The position numbers were made by a program, and so were the translations under genes. The notes under the pieces were generated by a model. The model ran no database searches, was not told the origin of the DNA, and saw nothing but the letters and a program-made list of their open reading frames with translations. A DNA stretch of 64,000 nt, taken from positions 1 to 64,000 of the forward strand of contig CALXXL010000004.1 of the NCBI GenBank assembly GCA_944392655.1. The letters run 5' to 3'. This document shows, piece by piece, positions 42,032 to 52,631 of this stretch (positions are counted from its first letter, which is position 1; each line of letters starts with the position of its first letter). The DNA comes from an uncultured Victivallaceae bacterium. GTDB taxonomy: Bacteria > Verrucomicrobiota > Lentisphaeria > Victivallales > Victivallaceae.

Positions 42032-42517
42032 ATGGTGAAAGAGCGCGATGATTTATCAGAAGCGAAGAAACTGGAATTTGACATTCCGGTAAAGGATTCC
42101 GGCAATCCGTCCATAAAGGCTGTTCCGGCGGAAGATGCTGAGCCGCCGCAGGAGAACGGGCCGACAACCCCTGATTCCACCCCGGAGGCGGACGATAATC
42201 CGGCTGAAGATAAGAAGCGTGTGCGTCCGATAGACCATCCTCTGGAGGAGGAGAGTGCAGTGGACGAGGCTGAAATTGCGGCTCTTCTGATGAAGTTTGA
42301 GGCGGAAAATAACCGTTATCCGGAATACCCCAACTGGCGGAAAGGTGCGTTGTGGGGGGTGTTGACGCTGCTTATGCTGATATGGGCGGTATATTCGCTG
42401 TACAAAGAGCAGGCATCTGGAGCGCCGGACTTCAGCGGCAGTGTATTGCCGTTTTTCTTCATGCTGTTAACGCTGATACTTTGGTTATTGGCGACTTTCC
42501 GGCCGGGCAATGAGTAA
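42032..42517 (+). CDS. Small two-helix membrane protein, unknown
   Basis: The 161-residue product has a long acidic, Pro/Glu/Asp-rich cytoplasmic region (about 1-100), then two helices (about 108-126 and 138-156; KGALWGVLTLLMLIWAVYSL and VLPFFFMLLTLILWLLATF). I recognise no family. It overlaps the XPB-like helicase gene by 8 bp, so it is coexpressed with it. GAGAGGTG precedes the ATG. A membrane tether or unrelated passenger are both possible. Confidence 0.75.
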   Translation: MVKERDDLSEAKKLEFDIPVKDSGNPSIKAVPAEDAEPPQENGPTTPDSTPEADDNPAEDKKRVRPIDHPLEEESAVDEAEIAALLMKFEAENNRYPEYPNWRKGALWGVLTLLMLIWAVYSLYKEQASGAPDFSGSVLPFFFMLLTLILWLLATFRPGNE

Positions 42518-43904
42518 TATCAGGAATGTTTTAAGATTCAAATCCGGCACATTGCTGTTTGACGGGGCGGAGTTGCCCGGGTGTCTGAATAGCTGTTTCA
42601 TCTATGATCCACGGACACTGGAATACCGTGCGCGAGGTTGTGATTATCGCAGGATAATGGAGTTGGCGCGTGCGAACGGGGTGGATTTATGCGATGAAGC
42701 GTCGGCATTTGAGCCGGTGAAATTAAATTTTGTCCAGCCGCTGATTCCCCGTCCGCATCAGGATGCGGCTTATGCTGCGTGGAAGCGGAATAAATGGCGC
42801 GGGATAGTTGCATTGCCGACCGGGGGAGGCAAAAGTTTTCTGGCGGCGATGGCTATCCGTAAACTTCAGCGTCCTGCGCTGGTACTGGTACCGACGATCG
42901 ACCTTCTTCTGCAGTGGCACTCTCTTTTAAAGAAGCTGTTCGGGGTGGAGATAGGGATGCTGGGCGGAGGAGAGAAGCGGGTGCTGCCGATCACGGTAAG
43001 CACCTATGATTCAGCGGTTATCTACATGGAGGAGCTTGGCGGTAGTTTTGCACTTCTGATATGTGATGAATGCCATCATCTGCCAGGGGCGGTGTACCGG
43101 ACTGCGGCGGAGCAGAGTATTGCGCCGTACCGGTTGGGATTGTCGGCCACGCCGGAGTTGGATCCGGATCCGGAACGGCTCATGCGTCTTTACGAGCTTC
43201 TTGGCGATATAATCTACCGGGTTGAGGTGGCGGAACTGGAAGGGGAGACGCTGGCGCCTTATACAGTGAAATCGGTGGTATTGGAACTGACCGGCAAAGA
43301 GAAAGAAGAGTACGAATATCACCGCGCTGTTTACCGTGATTTTGCCGTGCGCAACCGGATTGATTTCGGGAAAGATTCCGGGTGGCGTGATTTTCTGATC
43401 GCCGTATCGCGCCGTCCGGATGGCCGCCGGGCGTTTTTATCTTATTTGCGTCAACGTGAGTTGTCGCGTCGCGGAGCGGCAAAGCTGGCGGCGGTGTGGC
43501 GTATACTGTGTCGTCACCGGGATGAGCGGATACTGATATTTACCGCGGACAACGCCATGGCCTACGAGATCGGCCGGACGTTCTGTTTTCCGGTCATTAC
43601 GCATTCTACAAAGGCGGTGGAGAGGAAGAGCTGGCTGGATGGTTTCCGGGAAGGCATCTATCCTGTACTGGTAGCGAGCCGGGTATTAAATGAGGGGGTT
43701 GATGTGCCGGAAGCGTCGATCGGCATAGTGGTATCCGGTTCCGGCAGTGTACGTGAACATGTTCAGCGTCTCGGGCGTATATTGCGCGGGAGGCCCGGCA
43801 AGCAGGCGATACTGTATGAACTGGTCAATTCGGGGACGGCGGAGGTTTATGCGATGAAGCGCCGCCGTGGTCATTCGGCCTACCGCGGCAAGACACGGAG
43901 TTGA
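42510..43904 (+). CDS. XPB-like superfamily 2 DNA helicase
   Basis: The 464-residue protein has an N-terminal damage-recognition-like region (1-80), Walker A LPTGGGKS, Walker B as DECHHLP, motif III LGLSATP, and C-terminal motifs VLNEGVDVPEASIGIVVSGSGS and QRLGRILRGR, matching XPB/SSL2 rather than RecG or RecQ. XPB opens DNA in transcription-coupled and excision repair. It is immediately followed by a Bax1-like nuclease gene; in Archaea XPB and Bax1 form such an operon and complex. Start ATG 42510 overlaps the preceding gene. Confidence 0.85.
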   Translation: MSNIRNVLRFKSGTLLFDGAELPGCLNSCFIYDPRTLEYRARGCDYRRIMELARANGVDLCDEASAFEPVKLNFVQPLIPRPHQDAAYAAWKRNKWRGIVALPTGGGKSFLAAMAIRKLQRPALVLVPTIDLLLQWHSLLKKLFGVEIGMLGGGEKRVLPITVSTYDSAVIYMEELGGSFALLICDECHHLPGAVYRTAAEQSIAPYRLGLSATPELDPDPERLMRLYELLGDIIYRVEVAELEGETLAPYTVKSVVLELTGKEKEEYEYHRAVYRDFAVRNRIDFGKDSGWRDFLIAVSRRPDGRRAFLSYLRQRELSRRGAAKLAAVWRILCRHRDERILIFTADNAMAYEIGRTFCFPVITHSTKAVERKSWLDGFREGIYPVLVASRVLNEGVDVPEASIGIVVSGSGSVREHVQRLGRILRGRPGKQAILYELVNSGTAEVYAMKRRRGHSAYRGKTRS

Positions 43905-43908
43905 TGTT

Positions 43909-45120
43909 ATGCTGAGCAAACAATATTTGAAATACCGCCGTTCGGGCGATTATTTAAAGATAGTATTCAAGCGTATCGATGATATTGCCGCATTGGATAC
44001 CTCGGATATGCTTCTGGAGCTTTTCCGTACCGCGGAGAAGGAGTCGTGGCGGTGGCGAATGCTGGAGGAAGCGGTACAGAATGCCGGATCCGGCAGTACG
44101 GATATAAAGTTTGCGCAGGCGTTGGCGTCGCTATTGTTCAAGCGGGTCAACTGGCGTGGCGGTGGATCATCGCATGGAGAGGATTTCGCCATTGTGCGCA
44201 GTAAACTGTTTGCGCTTTCCGGGGAACTGCTCCGTTCTGGGAGATATCAGGAGCTGGTTGATTTTCAGAATGCGCTTCCGGTGCCTGACGGGATGGATAT
44301 TTACGGAGATCTACCGGAAAACGATATTGTGGATAAATTCAAGGATATAAGCGGTCGCGGTGTGCTTGAGTTGTACAATATGGCGCAGGTACAGGGGTTG
44401 CTGATGCGGGCGCGTGAGCTGGAGATAACCTTCCGCAACCCGGATACGGTAAAACTGCGCAATATCTTCAAATATCTGAAGTTCTGCCGTCTTTTAGCGG
44501 AGATAAAACGGGATAAAGGGGTGGTTACTTTAAAAGTCTCTGGTCCTCTGGCGTTATTGAGTGACAACCGCAAATACGGATTGCAGCTGGCGGTATTTTT
44601 TCCGGCGGTGGCAACGATGAGCGAATGGCGTCTCAAGTGTGATATAGAGTTGGAAAACGGTTTGCATCCCTATCGTCTGATATTGGATGAGCAGAGCGGT
44701 TTGGTCAGTCATTACCGACATTATTCTAATTATTTACCGGAGGAGATAAAACTTTTCCAGCGTCACTTTGCGGAAAACAGTCCGGAATACACAATAGAGT
44801 ATGGAGGAGAAGTGTTGAAGTTAAAGGGTGGCGGAATAATAGTGCCGGACTTCACTTTCAGGCGTGTATCTGATGGGGAGGAGTATTATCTTGAGCTGTT
44901 TCACCGCTTCCATGCGAATGCTTTAATGGAAAGGATCGGCGGGTTCAATTCAGGTTCAATTCCGTACATTGAGCGTCTGCTTATTGGAGTTGATCGCTCT
45001 CTTACTGGCTCAGGAACGGTTGTGGACGAATTTGTCGCCGGGAATCCGGACCGTGTTTTTCTTTTCCGTGATTTTCCCGGAGTTGCGACGGTGCTTAAAC
45101 TGTTGCGCCGGCGTAATTGA
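43909..45120 (+). CDS. Bax1-like (DUF790) nuclease, partner of XPB
   Basis: The ATG at 43909 is 8 nt after GGAG, giving 403 residues starting MLSKQYLKYRRSGDYL, like DUF790 proteins. A C-terminal PD-(D/E)xK-type core is suggested by IIVPDFTFRRVSDGEEYYLELFHRF (Pro-Asp then Glu-Leu-Phe). In Archaea, Bax1 binds XPB and cuts DNA at bubble and fork structures. The gene starts 4 nt after the helicase stop, so the pair should be made together. The family is assigned from motif and context; sequence search is needed to confirm. Confidence 0.72.
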   Translation: MLSKQYLKYRRSGDYLKIVFKRIDDIAALDTSDMLLELFRTAEKESWRWRMLEEAVQNAGSGSTDIKFAQALASLLFKRVNWRGGGSSHGEDFAIVRSKLFALSGELLRSGRYQELVDFQNALPVPDGMDIYGDLPENDIVDKFKDISGRGVLELYNMAQVQGLLMRARELEITFRNPDTVKLRNIFKYLKFCRLLAEIKRDKGVVTLKVSGPLALLSDNRKYGLQLAVFFPAVATMSEWRLKCDIELENGLHPYRLILDEQSGLVSHYRHYSNYLPEEIKLFQRHFAENSPEYTIEYGGEVLKLKGGGIIVPDFTFRRVSDGEEYYLELFHRFHANALMERIGGFNSGSIPYIERLLIGVDRSLTGSGTVVDEFVAGNPDRVFLFRDFPGVATVLKLLRRRN

Positions 45121-45202: not shown

Positions 45203-45259
45203 AGCGAGCGTAAAATATTTTTTTATAATTAAATGCTTTGCCGCAAGAGGGTAAATAAG

Positions 45260-45676
45260 ATGGTAAAACAAGCAGATGTGGATAAAATCGACAATTTCAC
45301 TGAAAAAGAACGGAAGTATTATAATCTTCTGCTTCAATACCGGGATGTGATCGCCGGCAATATGAAAAGTCATGCAGAGAACGCTCTGGATGCCTCGAAT
45401 GCGGACAAGCGCGGGGTTACGACGCACATGGCCGACGTTGGTGCTGACAGTTCCCGGAATGAGATGGAGCTGCAGCTGATGACGGATGACGGCAGTGTGC
45501 TGGACATGATAAATGATGCGATTCAGCGTTTGCTTGATCATGAATATGGCAAGTGCCACGACTGTGGAGCGGAGATTCCGGAGGCTCGTCTGGAAGCGAA
45601 GCCGTATGCGATATATTGCGTAAAATGCAAGAGCATCAGGGAAAAGAACGACGGGCACAATCCGTACGTTGATTGA
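45260..45676 (+). CDS. DksA/TraR-family zinc-finger protein
   Basis: ATG 45260 follows AGAGGG at 8 nt, giving 138 residues. The N-terminal coiled-coil region (about 5-80) is followed by a four-Cys zinc finger CHDCG...YCVKC at the C-terminus, as in DksA/TraR. Such proteins bind RNA polymerase and, with ppGpp, adjust rRNA and stress transcription. The coiled-coil tip acidic pair of DksA cannot be aligned surely. It heads an operon with lspA and miaA. Confidence 0.9.
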   Translation: MVKQADVDKIDNFTEKERKYYNLLLQYRDVIAGNMKSHAENALDASNADKRGVTTHMADVGADSSRNEMELQLMTDDGSVLDMINDAIQRLLDHEYGKCHDCGAEIPEARLEAKPYAIYCVKCKSIREKNDGHNPYVD

Positions 45677-45681
45677 TTCTG

Positions 45682-46218
45682 ATGGCGATAAAAGGTAAAG
45701 TTGAATATAAAACCGCACATGAACGTGCGGTTTTAGTTATTTCCGGGCTGTTGGGTCTGGTGCTGCTGGGGTTGGATCAGCTTACGAAGGTATGGGCTGA
45801 ACAGGTTCTGGCGGTAAAGGGTCCGATAGAGGTCATACCGGATTTTTTTTCGTTGACATTTGTCACCAACAAGGGGGCAGCCTGGGGTATATTCCACGGG
45901 CACACCGGGTTTCTGCTGATAGTGGCCGTGGCGGTATTGGTAGCCGGGCTGTTTTACTATCGTAAACTTACCGAGGGATATGTCGAGCGCTACTATTTTC
46001 TTGCGGTGATATTTTCGGGTATAATCGGCAATGCGATCGACCGTTTATGGCGTGGCGAGGTAGTAGATTTTCTTGATTTTACTTTTGGCAGTTACCGTTA
46101 TCCGACGTTCAATATAGCGGATTGTGCGATCTGCTGCGGAGCTGCTCTATATATACTTTCCTGTCTGTTAAGGCCTGCTGCGGGCAAAGAAGCGTCGCGG
46201 GATGAATCGGGCAACTAA
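45682..46218 (+). CDS. lspA: Lipoprotein signal peptidase
   Basis: The 178-residue protein has four helices and the aspartyl peptidase motifs: LDQLTKVWAEQ in helix 1 end, VTNKGAAWGIF, GNAIDRLWRGEVVDFLDF and FNIADCAI, which carry the catalytic Asp pair. It cleaves lipoprotein signal peptides after lipidation. The ATG at 45682 lies 5 nt after the dksA-like stop; a TTG at 45673 would add three residues. The 3' end overlaps miaA by 17 bp. Confidence 0.95.
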   Translation: MAIKGKVEYKTAHERAVLVISGLLGLVLLGLDQLTKVWAEQVLAVKGPIEVIPDFFSLTFVTNKGAAWGIFHGHTGFLLIVAVAVLVAGLFYYRKLTEGYVERYYFLAVIFSGIIGNAIDRLWRGEVVDFLDFTFGSYRYPTFNIADCAICCGAALYILSCLLRPAAGKEASRDESGN

Positions 46219-47125
46219 ACTTCTGGTAATTGCGGGGCCGACGGCCGGGGGCAAGAGTGCGCTTGGTCTGGAGTTGGCGGAGCGTTTGAATGGAGAGATC
46301 ATCTCCGGGGATTCGATGCAGCTCTACCGTGGTTTGTCGATTGGGGTGGCGAAGCCGGATGCGGCTGAACAGCGCCGGGTAAAGCATCATCTTATAGACG
46401 TATTTGACTTTTCGGTTCCGGTTGATGTGTACCGTTATCTGGAGTTGGCTGAACTTGCGATAGATGAAGTATCTTTGCACGGGGCGTTGCCGGTGGTAGT
46501 CGGTGGTACGGGAATGTACCTGAAGGCGCTGCTGTATGGTCTGGATGAGCTTCCCGGGGATGCGGTAGTGCGGAAAGAGCTGGACAGATTGTACGACAAT
46601 GAGTCTGGTGAAGCGGAGCTGAAGCGTCTGGTTCGTGAGTGTGATCCGGTCTCTTATGATAGGTGGGAAAAGCACCGGCGCAAACTTATCCGTGCGTTGG
46701 AGGTATTTCGGGTTTCCGGCCGGCGGCTGTCTGAGCTGCAGAGTGGGGAAAAGCGGCTGCGCTGTGATGCAAAGATGTTTATACTTCTGCCGGAGCGTGA
46801 AGAGTTGAAGCGCCGTATTGCGGCCCGGACTGCGAAGATGCTGCAGGATGGCTGGATAGAGGAGGCCGGGAGTGCGATAAAGGCCGGTCTGCTGGAATCG
46901 CCCACTGCGCGTCAGGCGCTGGGGTATGATATAATAGGAGAGTACCTGTCGGGCAGGCTCAGTTATGAAGAGATGTCCGACCGTATAATTACAAAGACCT
47001 GGCAATTTGCCCGGCGGCAGTTCACCTGGTTCCGGCATCAGCATCCGGAGGGTGAGGTCATCAGTTATCCGCTGGATGTGGATAAACTGTGTGCGGAAAT
47101 TGAGTTGTGGAGAGGGATGAAATGA
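46202..47125 (+). CDS. miaA: tRNA dimethylallyltransferase
   Basis: The 307-residue enzyme adds dimethylallyl to A37 of tRNAs reading UNN codons. It has the P-loop GPTAGGKSALGLELAE, DSMQLYRGLSIGVAKP, DVFDF and VVVGGTGMYLKALLYG, and the KTWQFARRQFTWFR end. The stop overlaps the next ATG (ATGA). It is in the dksA-lspA-miaA operon. Confidence 0.96.
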   Translation: MNRATKLLVIAGPTAGGKSALGLELAERLNGEIISGDSMQLYRGLSIGVAKPDAAEQRRVKHHLIDVFDFSVPVDVYRYLELAELAIDEVSLHGALPVVVGGTGMYLKALLYGLDELPGDAVVRKELDRLYDNESGEAELKRLVRECDPVSYDRWEKHRRKLIRALEVFRVSGRRLSELQSGEKRLRCDAKMFILLPEREELKRRIAARTAKMLQDGWIEEAGSAIKAGLLESPTARQALGYDIIGEYLSGRLSYEEMSDRIITKTWQFARRQFTWFRHQHPEGEVISYPLDVDKLCAEIELWRGMK

Positions 47126-48540
47126 GAAGATATTTTATCTGTTGTTGGTTGTTCAGCGTCATATCGCTAGCGGTGATGGGGCAGGAGCTGGTGGAAAAGA
47201 CGGAGTCTGGAAGCCGCAATGTTCTTCTGGTGTCCGACTATTATGGCGGTGGAGAGGTGTTTGACCACCGTTTGCCCGGGCAGTCACTGGTGAAGATGCT
47301 TGATCGAGCCGGGTACCGGGTGTGGATTCTGAATTGGGAGAATGTGCCTGCCGGATTTGATAGTGATGATGCGGTTGCGTCGGTTGCCGGTGCGGTAGAT
47401 AAGATATTGGCGGCCAATCCCGGTGCAGTTGTCTTATGCGGAGTTGGCTGGGGCGGTACGGTTGCCGGCAACTATGCGGTGATGGAGCCGGACAAAGTTG
47501 AACGGCTGATATTGCTGGATCCGGTATTTACCGGACTGGGAAAATTTGATGAACTTCCGTCTGCACCAGCCGGAGCGTTGCCGGAGATATGGAAAGAGCT
47601 GCATGTATCCGGTTCGGTATGGCTGCTGAATCCCGGTGTATTGCAGGTGCCTTCGCTGCTGGTGGCGAAGCCGGTTCCGGCGGGTCGTAATGCGGCGCTG
47701 GAGGCGATAGTGCTTCTGCCGGCGGGGTCGGAATTGGCGACGGCTGGTGCGTCCGATGCGGGGGTACTGGGCAGTCGTGAGAATATAGAGATTGTATTGA
47801 GTTCGGTAGAGTCATTTTTGAATAAGAATCTGCCGTTGCGTGGTGCAGGAAGAGCTGCTGCTCCGGTGGTTGCCGCGGTATCGGAGTACCGTATTACAAC
47901 ACCGGCAGAAGTTGCTACGGCTGAAACAGAAAAAGCTGCTGCTCCGGTTCCGTCTCAGGCAGAAACGGCTGAAGTGACCGTGCCGGTTGAATCCGCACCA
48001 ACTCCGGTAGAAGTTGCGAAAAAAACTCCGGTTGAACCCGTCACTGTACCGGTAGAAATTGCTAAGGAAACTCCGGTTGATTCCGCTCCGTATCCGACAG
48101 AAACGGCTGAAGTGCCTGCCCCGGCTCCGGAACCTGTGATAACTGAAGTGGTTGAATCAGAGAAATCTCCGTCTACTCCGGAGATGGATCAGTATCAGAT
48201 AGAGCATGAGGAGTGGTATAACAGGTACCGTGCGGCGCTGGCTTTGTCGGATGTGCATAATTGTGCCGGAGCGGCGGTATTGAATGGCAAAGTTGCGCCA
48301 TCGCGGAATGCGCCATCGTTATTGGCAGACCGCCATGCCGTGATCAAGCTGTTGCGTGAGGTGTCTGACGTGGAAAATGCGGTATTGTATTTATCGGATG
48401 CGCCTTGTGCCTACTGTGCCGGAGCGATCCGGTATGTGGGTATAGATAAAATAGTTATAATAGGCAAAGTGAAAGCGAATCGCGGTTTGCTGGACGAGCT
48501 TTCGGCTGCCGGAGTGGAGATAGAGTTTTTGGAAAAATAA
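47122..48540 (+). CDS. Exported protein with degenerate hydrolase and deaminase-like domains
   Basis: The ATG at 47122 follows AGAGGG at 5 nt, giving 472 residues. A signal peptide (MRRYFICCWLFSVISLAVMG) is followed by an alpha/beta-hydrolase-like domain (about 30-240) where the nucleophile elbow is GVGWG (107-111), with Gly where Ser belongs. A Pro/Val/Glu-rich repeat linker (260-350: TPVEVAKKTPVE and similar) leads to a cytidine-deaminase-like C-terminus (360-472) with PCAYC (428-432) and His405 but Val407 instead of the catalytic Glu. Both sites look inactive. I know no named family with this fusion. It is the last gene of the operon starting with the dksA-like gene. Confidence 0.7.
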   Translation: MRRYFICCWLFSVISLAVMGQELVEKTESGSRNVLLVSDYYGGGEVFDHRLPGQSLVKMLDRAGYRVWILNWENVPAGFDSDDAVASVAGAVDKILAANPGAVVLCGVGWGGTVAGNYAVMEPDKVERLILLDPVFTGLGKFDELPSAPAGALPEIWKELHVSGSVWLLNPGVLQVPSLLVAKPVPAGRNAALEAIVLLPAGSELATAGASDAGVLGSRENIEIVLSSVESFLNKNLPLRGAGRAAAPVVAAVSEYRITTPAEVATAETEKAAAPVPSQAETAEVTVPVESAPTPVEVAKKTPVEPVTVPVEIAKETPVDSAPYPTETAEVPAPAPEPVITEVVESEKSPSTPEMDQYQIEHEEWYNRYRAALALSDVHNCAGAAVLNGKVAPSRNAPSLLADRHAVIKLLREVSDVENAVLYLSDAPCAYCAGAIRYVGIDKIVIIGKVKANRGLLDELSAAGVEIEFLEK

Positions 48541-48636: not shown

Positions 48637-48662
48637 TGCGGGAAACCTTGAAGTTTTCCGCA
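48637..48662 (+). promoter_or_regulatory. Leader hairpin of the secretion operon
   Basis: TGCGGGAAAC and GTTTTCCGCA form a 10-bp stem (one G-U) with a 6-nt loop, about 40 nt before the ABC transporter start. It is not followed by a T-run, so it is more likely an RNA-stability or translational element than a terminator. Confidence 0.5.
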
Positions 48663-48701: not shown

Positions 48702-51263
48702 ATGGAAACAGTACAATATCCGACTGGGATTGTTTGTCTTAATTCGCTGATGAACAATCTGCGGCGCAATGTCAATTTTGACGCGCTGATCACTCCGGAG
48801 GTTCTGGAGGCCTACGCGGAGGACAGTGGCAAAGCGTTGTTGAGTTTGTCCGAGCATCTGGAGCTCAGTCCGCTTCTGGTGCACAAAGGAGTAGATGAAT
48901 TTGGTTATTACCGTGGTCCGGCGTTGTTGAAGTTGAAGAACAACAACTGGATATGCGTAGTTGATTTTGCGCAGGTGGTAGCGCAGGGCAAGGTAACGTT
49001 GTTTGACCCGTCGATCAACGGGCCGCAGAAGGTGGGTTCGTGTGATTATGCGCAGGTGGACTCCAAATGGAGCGGGGAAGTTCTGATTTTCCGCAATCTT
49101 CAGCCGATAGACACGACTAAACACACTGCGTTATTCTGTATAACCAGTATAGCCAAGCATCATAATCTGCCGCTGGACATGCGCCAGCTGATGCATGAAT
49201 ATGCCATATCGGATGAAGAGCCGACTGAACGTCTGATGCTCAAGATGGCGACCGACCATGAGATGAAGGCGAAATCGGTTGCTTTGCCCTGGAGTAAACT
49301 TGGCAAACTTGGCCGGGCTTATCCTGCAATTGCGCGCAAGAAAAATGGCCGTTATGTAGTTTTGTGCGGATTCCGTCCCAACGATGAGAACAACAAGAAT
49401 CTGGTGCTGGTAGACCCTGAAACCCGTCCGGATACGAGCAGTCAGCGTTTTCTCTACTGGAGTCAGGAAGAGTATGAAGAAGCCTGTTCCGGCGAAGGGA
49501 TACTGTTAAAGCGCATTTACAAACTTACAGATGAGAACCAGCCGTTCGGTTTGCTGTGGTTTCTGCCTGAATTCTTCAAGCTCAAGGGAGTTTTTGGTCA
49601 GATAGCGCTGGCAGTTCTGGCGATGACGGCCATTGCGCTGGTGATTCCGCTTTTCTTCCAGATAGTGGTGGACAAGGTTCTGGCAAACGGCACTTATCAG
49701 ACGTTGAACGTGCTGATGATCGGTGTATGTGTGGCGTTGATATTCAATGCATTTATGGAGTATCTGCGCAGTTATCTGTTGCTTTTTGCTACGAATAAAA
49801 TTGACATCAATACGGCGACGAAGACCTTCCGTCACCTGATGCGTCTGCCGATAGACTTCTTTGAGCGGGTTCCGTCGGGAGTATTGCTCAAACACATGCA
49901 GCAGACGGAAAAGATCCGCGGCTTCCTGTCCGGGAATCTGTTCTTTACAGCGTTGGAAGTTTCGACTCTGGTGGTATTTATACCGTTCCTGCTGCTGTAC
50001 AGTGTACGTTTAACGCTGGTGGTAATGGCGTTTTCGCTGATGATGGCGATAGTGATCGGTACCTTGATCCGTCCGTTCCAGCGCCGTCTGCATGAGTTGT
50101 ACAATGCTGAAGGTAAGCGTCAGAGTATGCTGGTTGAAGCGATACACGGTATCCGCACGGTAAAATCTCTGGCGATAGAGCCGGTGCAGGAGAAAGCGTG
50201 GAATGACTCGACGGCATTTGCGATCAACGCCTATTTCCGTGTGGGTAAGATTTCTATGACGGCGAAGACGCTGAGCCAGTTTTTAGAGCTGCTGATGACG
50301 GTAACGATCATCTATATGGGAACAACGATGGTATTTGACCTGCAATTGCAGGTGGGTGAATTGATAGCCTTCCAGATGCTTTCCGGCCGTGTAACCGGTC
50401 CTCTGGTGCGGATGGTGGCGTTGGTTCATGAATACCAGCAGGTTGCGCTTTCGGTAAAGATGCTTGGCGTAGTAATGAATACGCCGTCCGAGCCGGCTGG
50501 TGGCGGTGTACGCAATCCGTTAAAGGGTAACATTACGTTTGAAAATGTTACGTTCCAGTATACGCCGGACACGCCGCAGGTAATCAAGAACTTCTCTCTG
50601 GAAGTAAAATCGGGGCAGTCTCTTGGTATAGTCGGGCGCAGCGGCTCGGGTAAGACGACGTTGACGAAGCTGCTGCAGGGACTTTATCCGGTGCAGAGCG
50701 GGATTATCAAGATAGACGGTATTGACATTCGTGAAATAGACAAGACGCACCTGCGCAGCAGTATTGGTGTTGTATTGCAGGAGAACTACTTCTTCAACGG
50801 TACGGTGCGTGAAAACATCTGTCTGACCAAACGTTCAGCTACGCTGGAAGAGATTATCTATGCGGCCAAACTTGCCGGAGCGGATGAGTTTGTGCAGAAG
50901 CTGCCGAAGGGTTATGATACGATGCTGGAAGAGAATGCGTCTAACCTTTCCGGTGGTCAGAAGCAGCGTCTGGCGATAGCGCGTGCGCTGTTGACTAACC
51001 CGGCGATATTGATATTTGACGAAGCGACGAGTGCGCTGGACCCGGAAAGTGAAATGGTGATCCAGAACAACCTGGCGGCTATGTCGCGTGGGCGTACGGT
51101 GCTGATAATCTCGCACCGTCTGAGTATTGTATCTGGAGCGAGTCAGATTCTGGTGCTTGAGGAAGGTGTTCGTGCCGCGTTGGCGCCGCATAAGGAACTG
51201 ATGAGCATACCTGGTACCTACAAAGAGTTCTGGCAGCAGCAGCTTGGCCGACATCAGGCTTAA
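48702..51263 (+). CDS. Type I secretion ABC transporter with C39-like domains
   Basis: The 853-residue protein begins with a region of about 270 residues holding two C39-like domains: one at about 10-125 and one at 130-265 (TALFCITSIAKHHNLPLD), both without the catalytic Cys-Gly of true peptidases. A six-helix membrane domain (about 300-580) and nucleotide-binding domain follow, with Walker A GRSGSGKTT (near 645), signature LSGGQKQRLAIARAL and Walker B LIFDEATSALD. HlyB-type exporters use an inactive C39-like domain to hold the substrate. It exports a protein with HlyD; no substrate or TolC gene is in the window. Confidence 0.9.
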   Translation: METVQYPTGIVCLNSLMNNLRRNVNFDALITPEVLEAYAEDSGKALLSLSEHLELSPLLVHKGVDEFGYYRGPALLKLKNNNWICVVDFAQVVAQGKVTLFDPSINGPQKVGSCDYAQVDSKWSGEVLIFRNLQPIDTTKHTALFCITSIAKHHNLPLDMRQLMHEYAISDEEPTERLMLKMATDHEMKAKSVALPWSKLGKLGRAYPAIARKKNGRYVVLCGFRPNDENNKNLVLVDPETRPDTSSQRFLYWSQEEYEEACSGEGILLKRIYKLTDENQPFGLLWFLPEFFKLKGVFGQIALAVLAMTAIALVIPLFFQIVVDKVLANGTYQTLNVLMIGVCVALIFNAFMEYLRSYLLLFATNKIDINTATKTFRHLMRLPIDFFERVPSGVLLKHMQQTEKIRGFLSGNLFFTALEVSTLVVFIPFLLLYSVRLTLVVMAFSLMMAIVIGTLIRPFQRRLHELYNAEGKRQSMLVEAIHGIRTVKSLAIEPVQEKAWNDSTAFAINAYFRVGKISMTAKTLSQFLELLMTVTIIYMGTTMVFDLQLQVGELIAFQMLSGRVTGPLVRMVALVHEYQQVALSVKMLGVVMNTPSEPAGGGVRNPLKGNITFENVTFQYTPDTPQVIKNFSLEVKSGQSLGIVGRSGSGKTTLTKLLQGLYPVQSGIIKIDGIDIREIDKTHLRSSIGVVLQENYFFNGTVRENICLTKRSATLEEIIYAAKLAGADEFVQKLPKGYDTMLEENASNLSGGQKQRLAIARALLTNPAILIFDEATSALDPESEMVIQNNLAAMSRGRTVLIISHRLSIVSGASQILVLEEGVRAALAPHKELMSIPGTYKEFWQQQLGRHQA

Positions 51264-51278
51264 AGGGGGTATTTAGCG

Positions 51279-52631
51279 ATGAGCAAGAAGAAAAATGAAT
51301 TGGTATTATCCAATGATGTAATAGAGTTTCAGCCTGATGCGATTGAGCTGGCTAACCGCAAGCTGCCGTGGTGGGCGAGTGCCGGTGTGCTGTGGCTGTT
51401 TGGTTTTCTGCTGATAGCGATCATCTGGGCGAGTGTCTGCAAGGTGGATGTGCTGGTGCAGTGTAATGGAAAAGTGGTTTCACTGACGCCTGGTATAACG
51501 ATGTCTCCTCTGGATAGAATGATAATCTCGGAGATACTGGTTTCTGAAGGTGATGAAGTAAAAGAGGGTGATGTGCTGTTGCGTTTTGACCCGACTCTGA
51601 ATGAAGCGGATTACCGCAATATTTCAGAACAGATTGCCAAACTTCAGCCGGAATACGATCGTTTGCTGGCAGAATTTGAGGGGCGTGAATATGTTCCGAC
51701 TGATCCGAAGGACCACAATCAGCAGATACAGTTGGCGCTGTTCAATCAGCGTAAGCGTTCGTATGAATCGCAGGATAACTATTACAAAGCGTTAATAGCC
51801 ACCACTGAAAGTCAGATAAAAGCCACTAATGACAGTATCAAGAATCTTGAAGCATTGCTGGAAGAATTTACCAAAATGGTGGTAGCTTACCGTGAGTTGG
51901 TAGCAAAACAGGCGACTGCGGCTCTGGATCTGGTTAATATAGAGATGAACCGGATCAATTATGAAGGTCAGTTGACCAACTACCGCAATGCGCTGCCGTC
52001 TTATGAGAGTCAGTTGGCGAGCAATCATGCTCAGCGTCAGGCGTTTATCGACCAGTGGCACCAGCAGATTTCAGAAGAGTATAATACTTCCGAGCAGAAT
52101 CTCACTACGGCGAAGGAGCAGTTTGAGAAGGTCAAGCGTATGCAGGACTACTACGAACTGGTTGCACCCTGTGATGCGGTTGTGCACGAAGTGGCGAAAT
52201 ATGCGATAGGTTCTGCGGTGCGTGAAGCCGAGCCGGTGATCATGCTGATTCCGAAGGAAGAAGATTTCATAATGGAAATAGAGATTCCGGCGAAGGATGT
52301 TGGCAAGGTAAAGGTGGGCGACCGTGTCACGGTGAAGCTGAATCCGTATCCATTCCAGACCTGGGGTAAGATGATAGGTGAACTTTACATGATAAGTGAA
52401 GACACCTTTACGCGGAATCAGCCTACTGACATGGCCACGGCGCTGACAGGCAACACCTATTATCGCGGCAAGGTGCGCATTACGCAGAAGTTCACGAAAG
52501 AGCCGGAAAACTTCATTATGAAAGCCGGTATGGAAGGACAGGCTGAGATTATCACGGGTGACCGCCGGATTATCAGCTACATTTTCCATCCGCTGATCAA
52601 GATGTTGGATGAATCGGTGCGTGAACCGTAA
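51279..52631 (+). CDS. HlyD-family membrane fusion (adaptor) protein
   Basis: This 450-residue protein starts 15 nt after the ABC gene with AAAGGGGG before it. It has a short cytoplasmic N-terminus, one helix at about 29-52 (WWASAGVLWLFGFLLIAIIW), a lipoyl-like half (VSEGDEVKEGDVLLRFD), a long coiled coil (about 110-290), the second lipoyl half (VAPCDAVVHEVAKYAIGSAV) and the beta-barrel region (VKVGDRVTVKLNPYPF). It links the inner-membrane exporter to an outer-membrane channel. Confidence 0.93.
   Translation: MSKKKNELVLSNDVIEFQPDAIELANRKLPWWASAGVLWLFGFLLIAIIWASVCKVDVLVQCNGKVVSLTPGITMSPLDRMIISEILVSEGDEVKEGDVLLRFDPTLNEADYRNISEQIAKLQPEYDRLLAEFEGREYVPTDPKDHNQQIQLALFNQRKRSYESQDNYYKALIATTESQIKATNDSIKNLEALLEEFTKMVVAYRELVAKQATAALDLVNIEMNRINYEGQLTNYRNALPSYESQLASNHAQRQAFIDQWHQQISEEYNTSEQNLTTAKEQFEKVKRMQDYYELVAPCDAVVHEVAKYAIGSAVREAEPVIMLIPKEEDFIMEIEIPAKDVGKVKVGDRVTVKLNPYPFQTWGKMIGELYMISEDTFTRNQPTDMATALTGNTYYRGKVRITQKFTKEPENFIMKAGMEGQAEIITGDRRIISYIFHPLIKMLDESVREP

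What the first reader, a model, noticed from the sequence alone, without database searches (positions are those of the whole stretch)
47122..48540. Exported fusion of hydrolase-like and deaminase-like folds, both apparently inactive
The nucleophile elbow is GVGWG with no Ser, and the deaminase His-Ala-Glu reads His405-Ala-Val407 while PCAYC zinc Cys stay. Linker repeats of the TPVEVAKKTPVE kind separate them. Zinc-binding deaminase folds on a secreted protein are known mainly from toxins; here the enzyme site has been lost, so a binding or structural role is more likely. It closes a housekeeping operon (dksA-like, lspA, miaA).
Basis: partly seen in the sequence, partly recalled or inferred. 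Interest (0 to 1): 0.62.

Follow-up and report, generated by a model that had tools for sequence, protein, structure and literature searches.

The report
Exported protein joining two dead enzymes
One bacterial gene encodes an exported protein that joins a hydrolase-shaped domain and a deaminase-shaped domain through a flexible proline-rich strap; both have lost key catalytic residues, so it probably binds or holds something rather than catalysing, but it was found in only one genome and its role is untested.

Summary
Window 47122-48540 (+) is an intact 472-codon gene, start-stop coupled (ATGA) to miaA. It encodes a likely signal peptide, an alpha/beta-hydrolase domain (aa 21-243), a Pro/Val/Glu/Thr linker (244-352) and a deaminase-fold domain (353-472). 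Both folds are supported by Pfam and by AlphaFold/Foldseek, although the models are only of moderate confidence. Hydrolase: the nucleophile is Gly109 and no His lies between 162 and 243, so nucleophile and histidine are both gone. Deaminase: H405, C429 and C432 remain and Glu is Val407. The C-terminal part is about 40% identical to yeast-type cytosine deaminases; 79 of 79 of those relatives keep HxE, and this protein also lacks their C-terminal tail. Placing HAE at 405-407 is favoured, not certain. No full-length relative was found in 78 family genomes, 388 phylum genomes or pattern scans of genome and viral collections. The toxin comparison is weak: the domain has the helix-4 topology of metabolic deaminases, no adjacent immunity-like gene was recognised, and the same genome encodes an exported lipoprotein deaminase with an intact HAE. 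Best reading: an orphan two-headed exported pseudoenzyme with a binding or structural role.

The parts
47122..48540 (+). Whole gene: 472-aa exported hydrolase-like/deaminase-like fusion
   Evidence: domain regions have codon adaptation 0.67, within the range of neighbouring genes
47122..47125 (+). ATGA overlap of this gene's start with the miaA stop (probable translational coupling)
   Evidence: sequence; coupling is inference
47122..47181 (+). Likely Sec signal peptide, aa 1-20 (MRRYFICCWLFSVISLAVMG|Q), no lipobox
   Evidence: read by eye; no signal-peptide predictor available
47182..47850 (+). Alpha/beta-hydrolase-fold domain, aa 21-243
   Evidence: Pfam; AlphaFold m9882e7147f4a with beta-alpha core to about aa 132, pTM 0.61, mean pLDDT 58; Foldseek E 6.6e-7 to monoglyceride lipases
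47440..47454 (+). Nucleophile elbow GVGWG: Gly109 where Ser/Cys should be
   Evidence: lies between model strand aa 103-108 and helix aa 110-121
47851..48177 (+). Pro/Ala/Val/Glu/Thr-rich linker, aa 244-352, probably extended
   Evidence: composition
47983..48103 (+). Imperfect 45-bp repeat, 2.7 copies, inside the linker
48178..48537 (+). Deaminase-fold domain, aa 353-472, related to yeast-type cytosine deaminases
   Evidence: AlphaFold m520e82f11c0e, pLDDT 71 overall and about 90 from aa 423 on; Foldseek, prob 1.00
48334..48342 (+). H405-A406-V407, degenerate HAE with Glu replaced by Val
   Evidence: predicted helix starts at aa 404
48403..48417 (+). PCAYC 428-432, intact zinc Cys pair
45233..47125 (+). 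Context: dksA-like (45233-45676), lspA (about 45673-46218), miaA (46202-47125)
   Evidence: Pfam; order seen in several relatives
48637..48662 (+). Terminator-like hairpin after the gene, before the next ABC-transporter gene (48702)

Best explanation
The gene makes an exported, most likely periplasmic, two-headed pseudoenzyme. After signal-peptide cleavage (inferred) a non-catalytic alpha/beta-hydrolase domain and a non-catalytic deaminase-fold domain, the latter probably still holding a structural zinc through H405, C429 and C432, are joined by an extended Pro/Val/Glu-rich strap of about 110 residues. The two heads act as binding or assembly modules (ligand pocket or protein interface) held at a distance, as NDRG proteins use a dead hydrolase fold and ADAT3 or the CDADC1 N-terminal domain use a zinc-bound dead deaminase fold. 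Shown: gene, domains, lost residues, position in the operon, absence from relatives. Inferred: export, zinc, lack of all activity, binding role. The partner is unknown.
For: Both folds. Loss of nucleophile (G109) and of any His in aa 162-243. Loss of HxE: against 79 of 79 related deaminases that keep HGE/HAE. The C domain also lacks the conserved C-terminal tail (P-x-x-W-x-E-D-I-G) of those enzymes. Zinc Cys pair and invariant core positions (Y, PC, C, I, G) are kept. The frame has stayed open although the nearest relatives found are only about 40% (C) and 25-30% (N) identical, and codon use in both domains matches neighbours, which argues for past selection on the protein. Precedents: ADAT3 with Val for Glu and zinc kept (PMC7713142); CDADC1 N-terminal domain with HAG and zinc (PMC12088426); NDRG3 with the triad fully replaced (PMC7022630).
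Against: No orthologue, so conservation of the lost or kept residues cannot be tested. N-domain model confidence is low past about aa 136. The HAE register is not certain. Signal peptide judged by eye. Loss of canonical residues does not exclude unusual activity.
Confidence: 0.6

Rival explanations
1. A decaying, non-functional fusion gene (young pseudogene in the making): two fused enzyme remnants drifting after loss of function, still open by chance.
For: Orphan gene; both active sites incomplete; the congener G001 has a phosphoribosyltransferase-like gene in this place after miaA.
Against: Intact frame, start-stop coupling to miaA, codon use of both domains like neighbours, hydrophobic core and zinc ligands kept. 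At saturation neutral drift would give about 3/64 stops per codon, i.e. about 16 in the two domains.
Confidence: 0.17
2. One head is still an enzyme with a non-canonical site, for example the deaminase-fold domain using another acid (D403 in the L401 register) or the hydrolase domain using another nucleophile.
For: dCMP-deaminase profiles place L401-A-D403 on HAE; D403 could supply a carboxylate.
Against: That register loses the zinc His and scores worse in the combined profile (-1.8 against 6.7 for H405); the predicted helix starts at 404. No His follows aa 161 in the hydrolase domain.
Confidence: 0.1
3. A secreted toxin or effector derived from a polymorphic-toxin deaminase, the deaminase being the C-terminal warhead.
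For: C-terminal position behind a linker; weak MafB19-deam match below cut-off; a type I secretion ABC/HlyD pair lies just downstream.
Against: Catalytic Glu missing; closest relatives are metabolic cytosine deaminases; helix-4 topology; no recognised immunity gene next to it; the Sec-type N terminus does not fit type I secretion.
Confidence: 0.04
4. The pseudo-deaminase head dimerises with the exported lipoprotein deaminase of the same genome (L245) as ADAT3 does with ADAT2, modulating a periplasmic deaminase.
For: Deaminase folds of this kind usually dimerise (general knowledge); Glu-to-Val as in ADAT3; an exported deaminase with intact site exists in this genome.
Against: The lipoprotein occurs in about ten other family genomes, none of which has this fusion gene; it is guanine-deaminase-like, not cytosine-deaminase-like; the genes are unlinked.
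Confidence: 0.05

Closest known systems
Yeast-type (FCY1-type) cytosine deaminase family, bacterial members
   Same: About 40% identity over aa 412-470; PCxxC, AGAI and GI motifs; same topology
   Different: HGE/HAE replaced by HAV; segment between strand 1 and PCxxC about 9 residues shorter; C-terminal tail absent; fused and exported
ADAT3/Tad3 pseudo-deaminase
   Same: Glu of HxE replaced by Val, zinc ligands kept (PMC7713142)
   Different: Eukaryotic tRNA deaminase subunit; no specific sequence kinship shown; no known catalytic partner here
CDADC1 N-terminal domain
   Same: Dead deaminase domain (HAG) that keeps zinc inside a larger protein (PMC12088426)
   Different: Paired in cis with an active deaminase domain; intracellular, vertebrate
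NDRG family (inactive alpha/beta hydrolases)
   Same: Hydrolase fold with replaced triad (PMC7022630); weak PDB matches to NDRG2 over the elbow
   Different: No NDRG Pfam match; NDRG is eukaryotic and intracellular
Class III PHA synthase and other alpha/beta hydrolases
   Same: Best weak NCBIfam match, TIGR01836, E 6e-5 over aa 52-134
   Different: Far below its cut-off; no Cys or Ser nucleophile; no catalytic His

Membership tests
Cytidine/deoxycytidylate deaminase superfamily (PF00383) | Sequence profile above curated cut-off | tested here: met
   28.5 bits against 25
Cytidine/deoxycytidylate deaminase superfamily (PF00383) | Fold alpha1-beta1-beta2-alpha2-beta3-alpha3-beta4-alpha4-beta5 | tested here: met
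   AlphaFold secondary structure, Foldseek prob 1.00; first half of the model is low confidence
Yeast-type cytosine deaminase (enzyme) | HxE with catalytic Glu | tested here: not met
   H405-A-V407; 79 of 79 relatives have HGE/HAE
Yeast-type cytosine deaminase (enzyme) | PCxxC zinc motif | tested here: met
   PCAYC 428-432
Yeast-type cytosine deaminase (enzyme) | C-terminal tail with P-x-x-W-x-E-D-I-G | tested here: not met
   protein ends at the last strand
Alpha/beta hydrolase fold | Fold and profile | tested here: met
   only the first half is modelled well
Alpha/beta hydrolase (enzyme) | Ser/Cys/Asp nucleophile in G-x-Nuc-x-G | tested here: not met
   G109 in GVGWG
Alpha/beta hydrolase (enzyme) | Catalytic His after the last strand | tested here: not met
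   no His in aa 162-243
Alpha/beta hydrolase (enzyme) | Catalytic acid | tested here: inconclusive
   no Asp/Glu in aa 176-193 where one is expected, but alignment there is weak
NDRG | NDRG profile match | tested here: not met
   not among Pfam matches listed up to E 10
Polymorphic toxin deaminase | Toxin deaminase profile above cut-off | tested here: not met
   MafB19-deam 23.8 bits, cut-off 27
Polymorphic toxin | Adjacent immunity gene | tested here: inconclusive
   downstream genes are a type I secretion ABC protein and HlyD, then uvrB; no immunity-family search was run beyond Pfam
ADAT3-like pseudo-deaminase | Catalytic deaminase partner | not testable with these tools
   needs interaction data

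The most novel reading that the evidence does not exclude
An exported pseudo-deaminase/pseudo-hydrolase strap protein that assembles with, and regulates, the exported lipoprotein deaminase of the same cell: a periplasmic counterpart of the ADAT2/ADAT3 arrangement.
Probability: 0.05. Interest if true: 0.7.

Novelty: new variant of a known kind. Interest (0 to 1): 0.35.

Why it matters
Dead-enzyme folds reused for binding are known, mostly in eukaryotes and inside cells; a single exported bacterial protein carrying two unrelated dead enzyme folds on one strap would be an unusual architecture. Its weight is limited by its presence in one genome only.

Tried and rejected
Whole-protein searches in viral contigs, genome contigs, 61 relatives and 388 phylum genomes, and an N-domain search of 78 family genomes, gave only single-domain matches (or, in G009, a low-complexity linker match that is unrelated). 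Tblastn of the separate domains gave only weak hydrolase matches in plasmids and nothing for the C domain in plasmids or phages. MAFFT alignments A1 and A6 misplace the first half of the C domain and were not used for the structure job; rows trimmed to the second half (A8) were used instead, so that the alignment did not decide the HAE register. Viral scans for hydrolase relatives gave little; A11 rests on ten phage hydrolase fragments. A toxin reading was considered and rejected (see rivals).

Full report
Observation. The 472-aa frame at 47122-48540 (+) is intact and carries the reported motifs at the reported residues. The start overlaps the stop of miaA as ATGA. Upstream are dksA-like, lspA and miaA, an order also seen in several relatives; a terminator-like hairpin at 48637-48662 follows the gene. 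The N terminus MRRYFICCWLFSVISLAVMG-Q looks like a Sec signal peptide without lipobox (by eye; not predicted by a tool).

Domains. Pfam finds Abhydrolase_1 (E 4.9e-7) and dCMP_cyt_deam_1 (E 1.5e-6) on the isolated domains, each above its curated cut-off. AlphaFold with a shallow alignment gives a beta-alpha hydrolase core up to about aa 132 with Gly109 exactly between strand and helix; Foldseek finds monoglyceride lipases and other alpha/beta hydrolases, best E 6.6e-7. TM-scores are about 0.5 and the last third is of low confidence. The C domain model (pLDDT 71; about 90 from aa 423) has the order helix, two strands, helix (404-413), strand, helix (430-439), strand, helix, strand, and Foldseek returns deaminases at probability 1.00. 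The linker is rich in A, V, P, E and T and holds an imperfect 45-bp repeat.

Lost sites. In the hydrolase domain the nucleophile position is Gly109, and no His follows residue 161, so the catalytic His is absent whatever the alignment. In the deaminase domain PCAYC is intact. H405-A-V407 fits HAE in RibD, TadA and CDAT8 comparisons and in a combined position-specific score (6.7 against -1.8 for L401), and the predicted helix starts at 404; dCMP-deaminase profiles prefer L401-A-D403. No placement yields HxE. The second half of the domain is about 40% identical to bacterial yeast-type cytosine deaminases, all 79 examined of which keep HGE/HAE; this protein also ends before their conserved C-terminal tail.

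Distribution. No full-length relative was found in 61 relatives, in 78 family genomes searched with the N domain, in 388 phylum genomes, or in pattern-based scans of genome and viral collections, which reach close relatives only. The congener G001 has a phosphoribosyltransferase-like gene after miaA. The fusion therefore rests on one assembly; both domains have the same codon adaptation (0.67), which argues against a chimera of foreign DNA but does not prove the join.

Mechanism. The best-supported reading is a two-headed exported pseudoenzyme with a binding or structural role. Each head has a precedent: NDRG3 for the hydrolase fold with its triad replaced (PMC7022630); yeast ADAT3, with Val in place of Glu and zinc kept (PMC7713142), and the CDADC1 N-terminal domain, HAG with zinc (PMC12088426), for the deaminase fold. 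Export, zinc and binding are inferred, and the partner is unknown.

Against the toxin comparison: the closest relatives are metabolic enzymes, the topology is the helix-4 type (terms as in PMC3482391, which notes that some toxins share it), MafB19-deam is below cut-off, and exported deaminases with intact sites exist here. L245 (C9:73855-74508) encodes a lipoprotein-like deaminase with HAE and EPCAMC; ten further family genomes match it at E below 1e-10, nine of them strongly and several with a lipobox.

Noticed in passing
L245 (G000:C9:73855-74508, -); relatives L246-L252: Predicted lipoprotein deaminase (lipobox ...FICGC-N) with intact HAE and EPCAMC, guanine-deaminase-like. Relatives in ten further of 78 family genomes, several with a lipobox; absent from the congener G001. 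An exported, apparently active deaminase is unexpected.
   Followed up: partly
48702-52631 (+): Type I secretion pair next to the gene: ABC transporter with a C39-like N-terminal domain and HlyD-type adaptor. Substrate not identified.
   Followed up: no
42510-45120 (+): XPB-like helicase followed by a DUF790 protein. DUF790 is, from memory, the Bax1 nuclease family, so this may be a bacterial XPB-Bax1 pair.
   Followed up: no
G000:C1:78998-79828 and window 46202-47125: Two MiaA homologues in this genome (37% identity), as in most of the 41 family genomes searched.
   Followed up: no
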